Assembly (NCBI GenBank): GCA_020444425.1
Contig: JAHLLB010000001.1
Coordinates: 202,938-266,937 of the forward strand
Direction of reading: 5' to 3'
DNA: 64,000 nt
DNA from: a bacterium
GTDB lineage: Bacteria > Electryoneota > Electryoneia > Electryoneales > Electryoneaceae
The translations under genes and the position numbers were made by a program. The notes beneath the pieces are model-generated. The model saw nothing but the letters and a program-made list of their open reading frames with translations, was not told the DNA's origin and ran no database searches. Below, piece by piece: positions 15,735 to 61,888 of this stretch (position 1 is its first letter; the number at the start of each line of letters is the position of its first letter).

Positions 15735-15836
15735 GGGGACATCTGTGGCACTGGCTGACGGTGGAGGTCGTGAGTTGCCAGATCGTTCCAGCAGGGATTC
15801 CCATCGCACAGAACAGCGTGTGCCACAGTTGTCCCC
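15735..15836. repeat. GGGGACA hairpin element 1
   Basis: A 102-bp element bounded by GGGGACATCTGTGGCAC and GTGCCACAGTTGTCCCC; the arms pair at 16 of 17 positions. The only mismatch is at arm position 8, as in element 2. REPIN-like organisation. Confidence 0.75.
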
Positions 15837-15852
15837 GATTTGCTAACAATCC

Positions 15853-15955
15853 GGGGACAAGTGAACGGTTTGACCGTCCGATCAACGAATCGTGACCCGG
15901 TAGCGATCCCGCCCGTCACATCGATACACCGGTCCCGATCCGTTCACATGTCCCC
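15853..15955. repeat. GGGGACA hairpin element 2
   Basis: A 103-bp element with arms GGGGACAAGTGAACGG and CCGTTCACATGTCCCC, matching at 15 of 16 positions. The inner arm differs from element 1 but is matched by its own partner arm. It lies 16 bp after element 1. Confidence 0.75.
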
Positions 15956-16160
15956 TCCCGGTTTGGTTTACCTGCGGATAAGCCCTGCTGGCGGAGCCAT
16001 CAGGGGCACGTTGGACGGACCTCATTCACCGGACGGATCCCACCATACCAACGGACAACCCGCGATAGCCGCCGATACACACCGGCGAACGATCACGGGC
16101 ACCAACACTTCGCTCCTGCCCGTGGTGCAAGAAACGACAACGCGGACGTGAATCCCTGAA

Positions 16161-16266
16161 GGGGACATCTGGCGGCACTTGGTGACGGTCGTTCGGTGAG
16201 TCTTCCCAAGATCGTCATCCATCGGAGATTCGATGTGAGGCTCGGCTTGTGCCGACAGGTGTCCCC
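16161..16266. repeat. GGGGACA hairpin element 3 (in tandem unit 1)
   Basis: A 106-bp element with arms GGGGACATCTGGCGGCAC and GTGCCGACAGGTGTCCCC, pairing at 16 of 18 positions. The same element recurs in the next two units. Confidence 0.75.
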
Positions 16267-16383
16267 GGCACCTGCGGATGACCCGCGATAGCCGCCGAAA
16301 CACACCGGCGGTCAATCACGGGCACCAACACTTCGCTCCTGCCCGTGGTGCAAAAAACGACAACGCGGACGTGAATCCCTGAA

Positions 16384-16489
16384 GGGGACGTCTGGCGGCA
16401 GTCGGTGACGGTCGTTCGGTGAGTCATAACATGATCGTCATCCATCGAAGATTCGATGTGAGGCTGGTCTTGTGCCGACAGGTGTCCCC
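16384..16489. repeat. GGGGACA hairpin element 4 (in tandem unit 2)
   Basis: Copy of element 3 with arms GGGGACGTCTGGCGGCAG and GTGCCGACAGGTGTCCCC. Confidence 0.72.
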
Positions 16490-16606
16490 GGAACCTGCAG
16501 ATAAGCCGAGATAGCCGCCGAAACACACCGGCGGTCAATCACGGGCACCAACACTTCGCTCCTGCCCGTGGTGCAAGAAATGACAACACGGATGTGAATC
16601 CCTGAA

Positions 16607-16712
16607 GGGGACATCTGGCGGCACTCGGTCACGGTCGTCCGGTGAGTCATAACATGATCGTCATCCATCGGAGATTCGATGTGAGGCTGGTCTTGTGCCG
16701 ACAGTTGTCCCC
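16607..16712. repeat. GGGGACA hairpin element 5 (in tandem unit 3)
   Basis: Copy of element 3 with arms GGGGACATCTGGCGGCAC and GTGCCGACAGTTGTCCCC. Confidence 0.72.
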
Positions 16713-16792
16713 CGAACCTGCGGATGAGCCGCGATAGCCGCCGAAACCGACCGGCGGTAAATCACAGGCAGCTGTCGTTGAAACGGCTTTTC

Positions 16793-16872
16793 ATCCCGGA
16801 CTGAAGTCCGAGGACGTGGGTACGGTGAAACCTTGTATCTCAACCAATCCCGGGCTGAAGCCCGAGGGCATG
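16793..16872. repeat. Pair of CGGRCT palindromes
   Basis: CCCGGACTGAAGTCCGAGGAC (about 16796-16816) and CCCGGGCTGAAGCCCGAGGGCATG (about 16849-16872) lie in the same orientation 53 bp apart. Each is a short near-perfect palindrome. The same two variants recur as pairs at 25.9, 41.1 and 61.9 kb. Confidence 0.8.
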
Positions 16873-16929
16873 CCGGTCCTGCTCCGAGCGGCGCTGGATT
16901 ATTGATCCAAAACCAGAATCTCAAGCCCC

Positions 16930-16952
16930 TGAACTGAGGACTCAGGACTGAC
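16930..16952. repeat. Heptamer array behind the beta-helix gene
   Basis: CTGAACT, GAGGACT, CAGGACT and GAC form three heptamers that end at the stop codon of the minus-strand gene at 16954. Confidence 0.7.
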
Positions 16953-16953
16953 G

Positions 16954-18528
16954 TTATTTGAGATACACCACCTTCCGAGACGCCTGCTGACCTCCGCCAC
17001 TCATCCGCAACAGGTACACCCCCGACGCCAGCCCGTCCGGCGCGGTCCAGGAGATCGTCTGATGTCCGGATCGTTGACCGAGTGAGATCGTGTTGACACG
17101 TTGTCCCGTGATCGTGTACACGGCCATCTCAACGGAGGATGGTGTAGGCAAAGTGAAGGCAATCGTCACGGTCGAATTGAACGGATTCGGGTAGGCACGA
17201 ATGATTCCAAAATCGTGAGGATTAGGCGACAGTCTCCGGTTGTCCCAAACCGCGCTGCCCTGGTCGTAATAGTGCATGCCGATGTCGGCGATGGTGCTGT
17301 CCGGGTCGTGCGGATTGTCGGGATCGCCGGCGTCAATGGCGGGCGAAGTGGAAAGCAGATGGAATAGATCCTCGGATTCTGGGTCGAACTCAGGGTCCAT
17401 GAATAAGTTGAAATGAGGATCGCAGGAATCGCCGTTGACGTTGACCATCGTGATTTCTTCGAAATGAATGACTGGTGATCGCGGTTCCTCGGTCAGCATG
17501 TTTTCACAATTGTTGTAAAAGATGTTATAGTAGGGTATTGTACCATTACCATAGGAATAAATCGCTGCATCACCGATATTATTAGAAATTATGCAATTAC
17601 GTATTTGCGAAGCATCGAAGTAGAATACAGAACCATGCTGACCGGCTGTGTTATTCACCAACACACAGTTTTCTACACTAGTTGTTCCGTATAATGGCCT
17701 GTAGAAGACGCCACCATCGTATGTTGCTGAGTTGTTCTCAAACAGGGAATAGGTGGCGGAGAAGTGACCTTGCGCATAAACAGCCCCTCCATTTGCTGCA
17801 GTATTATTCGTGAAACGACAACTATCTGCTACTACACCAGCGCTTCCATTGTAAACCGCTGAATTCTGATTCGAGTCAAATACTGTCTTGTCACAATAAA
17901 CAGTTGAACCGACCACCGCTAGTCCACGTCCCGCGTTATTCGCGATTACAGACTCACGAAGTTTGAGGGTGACAAAGTAACCGTAATAACCATCGCCGTC
18001 ATTGTTTGTCAGATCGGAATAGAATACAGTGTCATAAAATGCCGATTGGCAATAGATCCCGCCGCCTTCTTCCGTGTCATCTGAATTGTAGGATACTCGG
18101 CTGTGTGTCAGCTTCAGAATACTGGAGTAGCAATAAATCCCGTTGTCGTCACTTCCGGTCACAACCGTGTGATCCAGACCGATGTACGAATAGTCCAGTA
18201 CGTCGATACCGCTCCACGCTTGATCTTCATCGTACCGCGTGAAGTAGACGCTGTCGTCTTCAGCTCCGTTTGCGACCAGCGTGCCGTTCACCAGGCAGCG
18301 TGTGCCCGGATAGAACCGCAGGTGCACACCGGCGGACAAGGACCACTGGTGGCCGTCGGCAACCGATACGTCGCCGATCACGTCGTACACGCCAGCGGCC
18401 AATGTCCCCGACTGCGGGCCGGAGAGTTCCTGCTGGGCGTGGAGGGTGAGAGGGATGCAGGCAAGGATGGTTGCGCAGAGAATCAACCCTGGTAATGTGT
18501 GAGGCCGTTTGTGGGAATACGTGGTCAT
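16954..18528 (-). CDS. Secreted right-handed beta-helix protein with YPNPFN C-terminal domain
   Basis: About 524 residues from the ATG at 18528, preceded by GGGGGA; the track form adds 37 unlikely residues. A signal peptide (about 1-32, ending LTLHAQ) leads into repeating Asn-, Tyr- and Ser-rich coils typical of parallel beta-helix or pectate-lyase-like folds (about 50-400). The C-terminal 85 residues start with AYPNPFNSTVTIAF and end in SRKVVYLK, a sorting-type domain of the Bacteroidetes type IX kind. The coding stretch about 17480-18080 is clearly more AT-rich than the flanks. No catalytic site was recognised; it may be a surface carbohydrate-binding or carbohydrate-active protein. Confidence 0.87.
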   Translation of the reverse strand: MTTYSHKRPHTLPGLILCATILACIPLTLHAQQELSGPQSGTLAAGVYDVIGDVSVADGHQWSLSAGVHLRFYPGTRCLVNGTLVANGAEDDSVYFTRYDEDQAWSGIDVLDYSYIGLDHTVVTGSDDNGIYCYSSILKLTHSRVSYNSDDTEEGGGIYCQSAFYDTVFYSDLTNNDGDGYYGYFVTLKLRESVIANNAGRGLAVVGSTVYCDKTVFDSNQNSAVYNGSAGVVADSCRFTNNTAANGGAVYAQGHFSATYSLFENNSATYDGGVFYRPLYGTTSVENCVLVNNTAGQHGSVFYFDASQIRNCIISNNIGDAAIYSYGNGTIPYYNIFYNNCENMLTEEPRSPVIHFEEITMVNVNGDSCDPHFNLFMDPEFDPESEDLFHLLSTSPAIDAGDPDNPHDPDSTIADIGMHYYDQGSAVWDNRRLSPNPHDFGIIRAYPNPFNSTVTIAFTLPTPSSVEMAVYTITGQRVNTISLGQRSGHQTISWTAPDGLASGVYLLRMSGGGQQASRKVVYLK

Positions 18529-18790
18529 AGGTCCCCCGCTGGTTGCTGTAACTTTGCATCCGGAGGGTTCGCATGCAAGTGGTCCTTGTGGATCGTTTAA
18601 TGCGGGGCATGGACGGGTTTGTGGTTTGCAGTCCTCCACAACCGCGAATCCGGTATTATCTTGTGGGATCGGTGGTGTCCGGGTTGACGATCAGCGCAGC
18701 CTCGGAGCCCGGAGCCCGTCCCTGAGCGACCGATTGGAGTGACCGAGCGTCCTGTGGTTGAAAGCAACACACGTGTGGTGCAAGAAACAG

Positions 18791-19309
18791 ATGAAAACGT
18801 TTGAAGAGTTGCTGAAACCTGTGTACCCCGAACTCGTGCGGTATTCGCGTGCGATGGCTGGCTCGAGTGCGGATGGTGACGACCTGTTGCAGGACGCTCT
18901 GCTGAACGCGTGGCGGAAGGTTCACACGTTGCGTGACCCGGACGGCTTCAAGTTCTGGATGTTGAAGATCATCAAGAACGCGAACATCAGCCGCGAACGG
19001 TCACGAAAGTTCAAGAGCTGGATTGGGCTGGAGGCGATCCAACGAATTCCGGCTTCAGAACCGATGTCTTATGAGGACAAGGATCTGGTGCGGACCGCGT
19101 TGGCGAAGGTGCCGAAGGACCAGCGTGAAGCGGTCATCTTGTACGAGATCCTCGGGATGTCGGTGAAGGAGATCGCGAAGCAACAGAAAGCGAGTGAGTC
19201 GGCGGTGAAGAACCGGCTGTCGCGTGGACGCAAGCGTCTGCGGGTCGAGGTGTCAGCACTCACAACATTGGAGAAGGGTCATGGACAAGCGTTTGCCGAA
19301 AGCTGTTGA
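18791..19309 (+). CDS. ECF-type RNA polymerase sigma factor
   Basis: About 172 residues from the ATG at 18791; the track TTG start 33 nt upstream is less likely. Sigma region 2 is seen at DLLQDALLNAWRKV and following residues (about 25-95), and region 4 at LPKDQREAVILYEILGMSVKEIA with the helix-turn-helix SESAVKNRLSRGRKRLR (about 105-160). Two-domain architecture without region 3 defines the ECF group. Its 3' end overlaps the next gene by 29 nt, which suggests translational coupling with that membrane protein as its anti-sigma factor. The regulon is unknown. Confidence 0.9.
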   Translation: MKTFEELLKPVYPELVRYSRAMAGSSADGDDLLQDALLNAWRKVHTLRDPDGFKFWMLKIIKNANISRERSRKFKSWIGLEAIQRIPASEPMSYEDKDLVRTALAKVPKDQREAVILYEILGMSVKEIAKQQKASESAVKNRLSRGRKRLRVEVSALTTLEKGHGQAFAESC

Positions 19310-20045
19310 GCATGGGCTGCACGAGCTGTCCGAGGAACAACCGGACGACTTCCAGCTCGAACGTTCCCTGGCCCGAGTGCGTCAACACCACTCCCACAGG
19401 AGAACCCGATTCATGAACAAGACTTGGATTCCGGTCGCGGTTGTCGCGGTGATTTTCGCCGCCCTGTTGCTGATCCCGGCGACGTACACGGTCACAGTTG
19501 GTTCGATTGTCGAGATTTCCATCCCGAGTTCGGATGCCTCGCTGGCGCAAACCATCGCCGATGCGACTAGCGACCTGCCCGGCGTGCAAAGCGCCAACAT
19601 GATGATGACCCCGGACGGTCTGACCTTGCGTTTCGCCAGTTCGGAGACAAACCAGTCTGCGGTCAAGCACACCATTCTCGATGCGACTGAATCCATGCTT
19701 GCCGGCATGGACTACGATGTCAGCACCGAAGCGGTGACGGTTGAACGTGGTGGCAACGCCCTCGCGGCGATCACCGGCGGAACGATCCGGATCAATGTGG
19801 ACGGCATGAGCGATAACGAAATCGAAGCCGCGATTGCGTCCGCGATTGTCGGCCAGGGCATGACACCGACGATGGTCGATGTACAGACCTCGGCGGATGG
19901 CACCCAGCGTGAGATCCAGATCGAGATGGAAGGCGATATCCCGGAAGGTGAAGAACGAACCTTCCAGTTCGAATTCCAGGGAGAAGGCGAAGGGGCCGAT
20001 GTCCAGGCTCAGCGCCAGATCGAATGGCACGAAGAGACGGAATAA
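19281..20045 (+). CDS. Putative membrane anti-sigma factor
   Basis: About 254 residues from the ATG at 19281, preceded by GGAGAAGG; the track form adds 19 residues that overlap the sigma gene further. A cytoplasmic N-terminal part of about 45 residues contains a charged amphipathic stretch (FQLERSLARVRQHHSHRR), one TM helix follows (about 48-70, IPVAVVAVIFAALLLIP), then an extracytoplasmic domain of about 180 residues with two similar halves and an acidic end. There is no Cys/His zinc motif of the ZAS class. The anti-sigma role is inferred from topology and the overlap with the ECF gene; the outer domain matches nothing I recognise. Confidence 0.7.
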   Translation: MDKRLPKAVEHGLHELSEEQPDDFQLERSLARVRQHHSHRRTRFMNKTWIPVAVVAVIFAALLLIPATYTVTVGSIVEISIPSSDASLAQTIADATSDLPGVQSANMMMTPDGLTLRFASSETNQSAVKHTILDATESMLAGMDYDVSTEAVTVERGGNALAAITGGTIRINVDGMSDNEIEAAIASAIVGQGMTPTMVDVQTSADGTQREIQIEMEGDIPEGEERTFQFEFQGEGEGADVQAQRQIEWHEETE

Positions 20046-20074
20046 CCCACACCGTCAACGTGTCATGGAACCGG

Positions 20075-20104
20075 AAAAGGCCACTGCTATCGCGGTGGTC
20101 TTTT
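20075..20104 (+). terminator. Intrinsic terminator after sigma/anti-sigma operon
   Basis: A stem AAAAGGCCACTG / CGGTGGTCTTTT (two G-T pairs) with a 6-nt loop and a plus-strand TTTTCTT tail, 30 bp behind the stop codon. Confidence 0.8.
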
Positions 20105-20116
20105 CTTGTGGACAAC

Positions 20117-20218
20117 GGGGACATGTGGCCGGAGTGAGGAGATGTGTTCGGTGAGAAACGTTGATCATTGACGAAGCTGGATTTGATGCGTTTCAAGTCA
20201 AGCCGGACACGTGTCCCC
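20117..20218. repeat. GGGGACA hairpin element 6
   Basis: A 102-bp element with arms GGGGACATGTGGCCGG and CCGGACACGTGTCCCC, 14 of 16 positions matching, 4 kb away from the main cluster and with a different inner arm. Confidence 0.72.
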
Positions 20219-20236
20219 CTCCCTGCCAATGATTCC

Positions 20237-20339
20237 GGGGATACCTGCCGGCACGCACGCCTCTCTCACGGAATCCACGGTCTCAAGCTACAGACCCTCT
20301 CACACCGACGATCCATTGTCCAGTGCCGCAGATGTCCCC
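20237..20339. repeat. GGGGACA hairpin element 7
   Basis: A 103-bp element with arms GGGGATACCTGCCGGCAC and GTGCCGCAGATGTCCCC. It follows element 6 after 18 bp, the same pair arrangement as elements 1 and 2. Its right end lies 16 bp from the nadE stop codon. Confidence 0.65.
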
Positions 20340-45993: not shown

Positions 45994-46009
45994 GGGGACA
46001 CGTGTCCCC
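45994..46009. repeat. Perfect 16-bp palindrome GGGGACACGTGTCCCC
   Basis: It lies one or two bases behind the P1 stem of the FMN aptamer and matches the outer arms of the GGGGACA hairpin elements fused head to head without a loop. A second hairpin, ACGCATC/GATGCGT (45961-45980), follows. Confidence 0.8.
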
Positions 46010-46010
46010 T

Positions 46011-46160
46011 GTCTTCTCCCATCCGGACTTTCACCGTCGGCACCGGAATTTCACCGGTCCAGCCTGTGGAGGGTTAACGAGCCACACTGGCTCTCGGGCT
46101 CCTCCATTCAGGGTCGCGGGCTTTCACCGCCGGTCTGGAATTGCACCAGGCCCCGAAGAC
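46011..46160 (-). ncRNA. FMN riboswitch (RFN element)
   Basis: Minus-strand reading gives P1 GTCTTC...GAAGAC closing the structure, the RFN consensus blocks CCGGCGGTGAAAGCCCGCGACCC, GGACCGGTGAAATTCCGGTGCCGACGGTGAAAGTCCGGATGGGAGAA, and variable P3-P5 arms (GAGGAGCCCGAGAGCCAGTGTGGCTC). It senses FMN and precedes ribD, with the terminator above as the switching element. Confidence 0.96.
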
Positions 46161-46166
46161 GTGAAA

Positions 46167-61604: not shown

Positions 61605-61766
61605 GGAAACCAGTTGTGAGCGGTGAGCCATGAGCTCTGAGCTCAACAACTCCTTATCGTCTTACGTCCTGGGTCCAGAGTCTTGAGTCCTGAGCAAAAC
61701 AACAACCCACAGCCTCAATTTCTCAGGATCTGTATCGTCACACCTTGGATTTTCGTCAAGGTGTTT

Positions 61767-61888
61767 GACTCAATCTCGTTGACTCAATCTCGTTGACTCG
61801 ATCTCGTTGACTCAATCTCGTTGACTCAATCTCGTTGACTCGATCTCGTTGACTCAATCTCGTTGACTCAATCTCGTTGACTCAATCA
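61767..61888. repeat. 14-bp tandem array GACTCAATCTCGTT
   Basis: Eight full units plus a partial (GACTCAATCACA). Units 3 and 6 carry GACTCGATCTCGTT, so variants recur every third unit and imply a 42-bp higher-order step. The unit is two heptamer lengths. Confidence 0.93.

What the first reader, a model, noticed from the sequence alone, without database searches (positions are those of the whole stretch)
15735..20339. Seven GGGGACA hairpin elements with co-varying arms
Elements at 15735-15836, 15853-15955, 16161-16266, 16384-16489, 16607-16712, 20117-20218 and 20237-20339 are 102-106 bp, start with GGGGACA (GGGGATA, GGGGACG once each) and end with TGTCCCC. Inner arm sequences differ between the loci (TGTGGCAC, TGAACGG, TGGCCGG, TGCCGGCAC) but each is matched by its own partner. 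Arm position 8 tends to be unpaired. This co-variation implies selection for a hairpin, in the style of REPINs mobilised by RAYT (Y1/TnpA-REP) enzymes; none is in the window. Paired spacing of 16-18 bp in both main pairs suggests double units.
Basis: partly seen in the sequence, partly recalled or inferred. Interest (0 to 1): 0.68.

Follow-up and report, generated by a model that had tools for sequence, protein, structure and literature searches.

The report
Paired RAYT-linked GGGGACA hairpin repeats
The seven hairpins belong to a family of at least 73 short repeats scattered through this bacterium's genome, often in pairs, that most likely spread as single-stranded DNA with the help of a transposase-like enzyme whose gene sits between pairs of the same repeats; this is a new variant of a known kind of bacterial mobile repeat.

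Summary
All seven elements are at the stated coordinates. The strict oriented form occurs 69 times in the 4.48 Mb genome, 0 times in the reversed-pattern control and 0 times in 38 other genomes of its phylum. Arm pairing covaries strongly: cells paired 95.8%, against 78.7% in shuffles and at most 52% when slid.

A RAYT-type Y1 gene elsewhere in the genome (contig C44) lies between two near-identical element doublets. This 1,020-bp island sits between two regulatory genes that adjoin in two related genera.

Each unit is a 15-16 bp stem around a roughly 70-nt, length-conserved, unstructured interior. Arm position 8 is a conserved T.T or T.G mismatch, so units are oriented. All 17 tight doublets (14-22 bp apart) have T-arms outside and two different stems. 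Doublet boundaries are exact, and no target duplication is seen.

The best reading is non-autonomous single-stranded-DNA elements mobilised by a RAYT, closest to the GGGGWSAS "TIRtron/TIRYT" repeats of Di Nocera 2013. They differ in long loop, oriented mismatch and always-heterotypic pairing. GTAG and the subclass 2.1 C-terminal helix-turn-helix are absent. Transposition itself was not shown.

The parts
15735..15836 (+). unit 1, C-type, arms GGGGACA-T/A-CTGTGGCAC, T-arm on the left
   Evidence: sequence
15837..15852 (.). 16-bp spacer of doublet A
15853..15955 (-). unit 2, G-type, arms GGGGACA-T/A-GTGAACGG, T-arm on the right
15735..15955 (-). doublet A (C-type + G-type, T-arms outside); 77% identical over exactly these coordinates to the doublet at C10:58262-58484, whose flanks differ
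16161..16266 (+). unit 3, C-type TGGCGGCAC, first copy of a 223-bp tandem repeat
16384..16489 (+). unit 4, same class, second tandem copy (GGGGACG start)
16607..16712 (+). unit 5, same class, third tandem copy
20117..20218 (+). unit 6, G-type TGGCCGG/TGTCCGG, T-arm on the left
20219..20236 (.). 18-bp spacer of doublet B
20237..20339 (-). unit 7, C-type TGCGGCAC (degenerate left arm GGGGATACCTGCCGGCAC)
20117..20339 (+). doublet B, filling most of the intergenic gap between two convergent genes (stops at 20045 and 20355); same-genus genome G001 keeps this gene pair without the doublet

Best explanation
These are non-autonomous mobile repeats of the REP/RAYT type. Each 102-106 bp unit folds, when single-stranded, into a 15-16 bp stem with a fixed T.T or T.G mismatch at pair 8 and a roughly 70-nt unstructured loop. 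A Y1/HUH transposase of the RAYT kind, most likely the one on contig C44, is proposed to read the common outer sequence GGGGACAT-STG and to need only pairing, not sequence, in the inner 5 bp. The mismatch tells it which strand it has. It would then cut and join single strands, so that units, and above all inverted doublets of two different units, are copied to new sites without target duplication. SHOWN: genome-wide family, paired arms, fixed mismatch and orientation, doublet geometry, exact doublet boundaries, RAYT between near-identical doublets, empty site in related genera, no target duplication. INFERRED: that this RAYT recognises and moves them, that single-stranded DNA is the substrate, and that the mismatch is the strand code.
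For: Genome-wide family: 69 strict copies, 0 in controls, 0 in 38 other genomes of the phylum. Covariation. Outer stem in the minimum-energy DNA fold of 44/47 units, while interiors fold no better than shuffles (mean z 0.02). Oriented mismatch. All 17 tight doublets have T-arms outside and different stems. Doublet alignment ends exactly at both outer GGGG ends. RAYT at C44:110726-111262 between doublets 219/220 identical. Its best NCBIfam match is REP_Tyr_transpos, 67 bits, below the 80-bit cut-off; a profile of it and four relatives hits E. coli TnpA-REP (PDB 4er8) best in the PDB; HxH and Tyr invariant. The genes on either side of the island adjoin in G004 (0 bp unaligned) and G006 (about 85 bp) against 1,104-1,191 bp here. 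No target duplication beyond chance. Relatives' RAYTs in the phylum have GGGGACAG- or GGGACAG-type TIRs. The genome's other RAYT (C64, 42% identical) is flanked by 28-bp GGGGACACTT hairpins, 72 copies. In Aminicenantota, four RAYT loci lie between pairs of 22-bp GGGGACA hairpins, three with a full pair on each side. A bulge in the stem is required by E. coli TnpA-REP (PMC8266576).
Against: The RAYT-flanking doublets carry stems (TGACGGC/TGACGACC) that no other copy in the genome shares exactly, so the commonest subfamilies have no cognate RAYT in this 91%-complete assembly. No GTAG-like guide tetranucleotide is seen beside the units. Doublet folding does not clearly favour two separate hairpins over one long cruciform. 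No excision or intermediate was observed.
Confidence: 0.8

Rival explanations
1. Each 103-bp unit is itself a REPIN (two 16-23 bp inverted REP arms plus a variable spacer), and the doublets are merely two REPINs inserted side by side. This differs from the best explanation only in what the unit of recognition and movement is.
For: Conserved 16-bp ends with a variable, length-conserved spacer are the definition of REPINs in Pseudomonas fluorescens (PMC3116915). Conserved asymmetric bases extend beyond the stem to about position 22. About 39 units are single.
Against: Doublets are not random pairs: 17/17 have T-arms outside, gaps of 14-22 bp and different stems, and some recur with their spacer (GGTTGACGTGGACTCAGC at five places). 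RAYT genes in another phylum are flanked by doublets of short hairpins, which equates one hairpin with one unit.
Confidence: 0.4
2. They are MITEs of an ordinary DDE transposase with GGGGACA terminal inverted repeats.
For: Short inverted ends, many copies, mostly convergent or co-directional intergenic sites.
Against: No target site duplication of 2-9 bp above chance in 55 insertions. A Y1/HUH gene lies between the copies. A fixed mismatch and orientation are unexpected for such TIRs.
Confidence: 0.05
3. They are host RNA or DNA elements (terminators, mRNA 3' stabilisers, nucleoid sites) kept for function; the RAYT association is incidental.
For: 25 of 74 sites lie between convergent genes and only 4 between divergent ones; REPs can acquire such roles.
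Against: Absent from all 38 other genomes of the phylum, including the same genus and the same gene pair. Interiors are unstructured, and no Rfam family matches.
Confidence: 0.1

Closest known systems
TIRtrons/TIRYT repeats with GGGGWSAS motif (Di Nocera et al. 2013, PMC3733652)
   Same: RAYT-like gene flanked by inverted repeats beginning GGGG(A)(C)A; the repeats spread through the genome, often as dimers or clusters.
   Different: Here the flank is a doublet of 103-bp hairpin units with a conserved oriented mismatch and about 70-nt loop. Position 8 is T/A/C, so the last S of GGGGWSAS fits only the C arms. No description of this exact layout was found in the papers read.
REPINs and RAYTs (Bertels and Rainey 2011, PMC3116915)
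   Same: Two conserved inverted ends, variable spacer of fixed length, extragenic, clusters beside the RAYT gene.
   Different: Ends are GGGGACA without GTAG; the tight doublets are always heterotypic.
E. coli REP/BIME and TnpA-REP
   Same: Heterodimers of different REPs (Y with Z), a required stem mismatch, and a Y1 single-strand enzyme (PMC8266576).
   Different: E. coli REPs are 29-37 nt with small loops and a GTAG guide; these units are 102-106 nt, with no GTAG.
28-bp GGGGACACTT hairpins of the same genome and 22-bp GGGGACA hairpins of Aminicenantota
   Same: GGGGACA ends, RAYT flanked by the hairpins, some doublets.
   Different: Loops of a few bases, no oriented mismatch seen.

Membership tests
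REPIN / REP-RAYT system | two conserved inverted ends around a variable spacer, many extragenic copies | tested here: met
   about 63 of 74 sites outside heuristically predicted ORFs
REPIN / REP-RAYT system | RAYT (Y1, HUH) gene in the genome flanked by the same repeats | tested here: met
   C44 RAYT between two doublets
REPIN / REP-RAYT system | GTAG (or CGTC) tag beside the hairpin foot | tested here: not met
   no conserved tetranucleotide in 55 outer flanks; only a weak GAA preference
REPIN / REP-RAYT system | RAYT-dependent cleavage or mobilisation | not testable with these tools
   needs protein and single-stranded substrates
TIRtron / TIRYT | RAYT flanked by TIRs with GGGGWSAS, repeated in the genome | tested here: inconclusive
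   GGGGACA fits; the eighth base is T/A/C, so the final S fits only C arms. Flanks are doublets, not one TIR pair
TnpA-REP subclass 2.1 (PMC6006769) | C-terminal HTH domain after the Y1 core | tested here: not met
   Pfam finds only Y1_Tnp in the 179-aa protein; 218-221 aa relatives carry a longer C-terminus
NCBIfam REP_Tyr_transpos (NF047646) | score above 80 bits | tested here: not met
   67.2 bits, best and only NCBIfam hit
DDE-transposase MITE | target site duplication | tested here: not met

The most novel reading that the evidence does not exclude
The heterotypic doublet is a minimal single-stranded-DNA transposon: the G-type and C-type hairpins serve as distinct left and right ends, a T.T/T.G mismatch eight bases from each tip is the strand code, and different stems are required so that the two ends fold separately. 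This would explain why REP dimers tend to be heterodimers.
Probability: 0.3. Interest if true: 0.6.

Novelty: new variant of a known kind. Interest (0 to 1): 0.42.

Why it matters
GGGGACA-tagged TIRYT repeats have been catalogued, but no dissection of them turned up in the papers searched. This genome offers a natural comparison: two RAYT paralogues, 42% identical, each with its own GGGGACA hairpin family, one with 8-nt loops and one with about 70-nt loops. The data separate what is fixed in sequence (outer 11 nt, mismatch), what is fixed only in pairing (inner 5 bp) and what is free (loop sequence, but not its length). They also bear on the unexplained preference for heterodimers noted by Di Nocera et al..

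Tried and rejected
Conserved structure inside the loop: interiors fold no better than shuffles; only weak sequence motifs remain, such as TTC..G near position 31. Guide tetranucleotide beside the units: none. Target duplications: none. Two separate hairpins versus one long hairpin in doublets: undecided, since linear folding gives both with close energies. RAYT protein scan of genome contigs found no close relative. The clean empty site is for the RAYT island; for window doublet B the same-genus genome has 1.3 kb of other sequence at that place, so it shows absence, not a clean empty site.

Full report
WHAT IS THERE. Units 3-5 are copies of one 223-bp tandem repeat. The window lies on contig C71 of a 4.48 Mb, 74-contig, 91%-complete genome. 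In that genome GGGGACAN{75,105}TGTCCCC has 84 matches and the backward-read control has none. The stricter form with NNTG inside each arm has 69 matches, none in the control and none in 38 other genomes of the phylum, including one of the same genus. Allowing one arm mismatch, 73 real units were catalogued in the stretches fetched.

ANATOMY OF A UNIT. Length is 102-106 bp. Across 47 units with interiors under 75% alike, the outer GGGGACA and the TG at positions 10-11 are nearly invariant, while position 9 and positions 12-16 vary together on the two arms. On 27 distinct arm pairs, 95.8% of cells pair, against 78.7% when partners are shuffled and at most 52% when slid; the covariation score is 0.377 against 0.090. 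Position 8 never forms a Watson-Crick pair in these 47: T.T in 26, T.G in 21. Because one arm has T and the other A or C in 69 of 73 units, each unit has a direction. The outer stem appears in the lowest-energy DNA fold of 44 of 47 units; the roughly 70-nt interior is no more structured than shuffles (mean z 0.02) although its length is kept.

DOUBLETS. Seventeen neighbouring pairs lie 14-22 bp apart. All 17 have the T-arms outside, and all 17 join two different stems; 15 join a G-type (position 9 G) with a C-type. Several of these are copies of one another, so independent cases are about ten to twelve. Window doublet A aligns to the doublet at C10 at 77% over exactly 15735-15955, with unrelated sequence outside. 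A near-identical doublet with the same spacer recurs at five places; some of those share flanking repeats, so they are weaker evidence of movement. No target duplication of 2-9 bp exceeds chance in 55 insertion units. About 63 of 74 sites are outside predicted genes, mostly between convergent or co-directional genes (heuristic gene calls).

THE ENZYME. Seven Y1_Tnp genes are in the genome. One, C44:110726-111262, lies between two doublets that differ at one base in 220, in direct orientation. The 179-aa protein keeps the HxH motif and the catalytic Tyr region shared by its relatives. It matches Pfam Y1_Tnp and NCBIfam REP_Tyr_transpos at 67 bits, under that model's cut-off of 80. A profile of it and four relatives finds E. 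coli TnpA-REP (4er8) as the best chain in the PDB. The whole 1,020-bp island lies between an NtrC-like regulator gene and a histidine-kinase gene (named here from reading the translations) that directly adjoin in two related genera: an empty site.

COMPARISON. A second RAYT (C64, 42% identical) is flanked by 28-bp hairpins GGGGACACTT-N8-AAGTGTCCCC, of which the genome has 72. RAYTs in related genera have TIRs beginning GGGGACAG or GGGACAG. In Aminicenantota, RAYT genes stand between pairs of 22-bp GGGGACA hairpins; three of four loci have a full pair on each side, as at C44, and the fourth a single hairpin on one side. The literature describes RAYT-like genes with GGGGWSAS TIRs that form genomic repeats, dimers and clusters (PMC3733652; PMC6006769) and the requirement of E. 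coli TnpA-REP for a stem bulge (PMC8266576).

MECHANISM. Best reading: non-autonomous single-stranded-DNA elements mobilised by a RAYT. The pattern of constraint suggests sequence reading of the outer 11 nt, a strand code in the mismatch, and shape-only reading of the inner stem. None of the enzymology was observed. Two mappings to known anatomy remain open: unit = REP and doublet = REPIN, or unit = REPIN. I lean to the first because of doublet geometry and the Aminicenantota layout.

VERDICT. Real, well supported, and a new variant of a known kind rather than a new kind.

Noticed in passing
window 15970-16010; genome-wide, e.g. C31:7923-8891: Palindromic repeat CTGCTGGCGGAGCCATCAGGGGCAC, 125 places with up to 2 mismatches and 0 in the control; copies lie on both sides of the Y1 gene at C31:8135-8428, which looks like a third RAYT-repeat pair in this genome.
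   Followed up: partly
window 16270-16330, 16495-16550, 16718-16775: Another hairpin repeat, GCGATAGCCGCCGAAAC..CCGGCGG..AATCACGGGCACC, 11 exact copies in the genome. It or the previous repeat often follows TGGCGGCAC units at about 15 bp, as if replacing the missing doublet partner.
   Followed up: partly
genome, 72 places, e.g. C2:64694-64765, C11:35594-35665: 28-bp hairpins GGGGACACTT-N8-AAGTGTCCCC of two stem types, sometimes 16 bp apart as heterotypic doublets, flanking the C64 RAYT.
   Followed up: partly
L085, L109, L123, L127 (Acidobacteria CTSoil_010): GGGGACAGCTGACTTCACAG repeats, several per genome, with an internal third TGTCCCC copy; possibly another GGGGACA TIR family.
   Followed up: no
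window 45994-46009: Short palindrome GGGGACACGTGTCCCC overlapping the 3' edge of an FMN riboswitch (46007-46164, minus strand).
   Followed up: no
L018 (C29:4921-5262 Y1 gene): Y1 gene beside a roughly 93-bp tandem repeat containing GGGGACGAATTTGAATAGCTCCGGGTGTCA and TGTTGTCCCC.
   Followed up: no
window 61765-61887: 14-bp unit TTGACTCAATCTCG repeated 8.8 times at 96% match.
   Followed up: no
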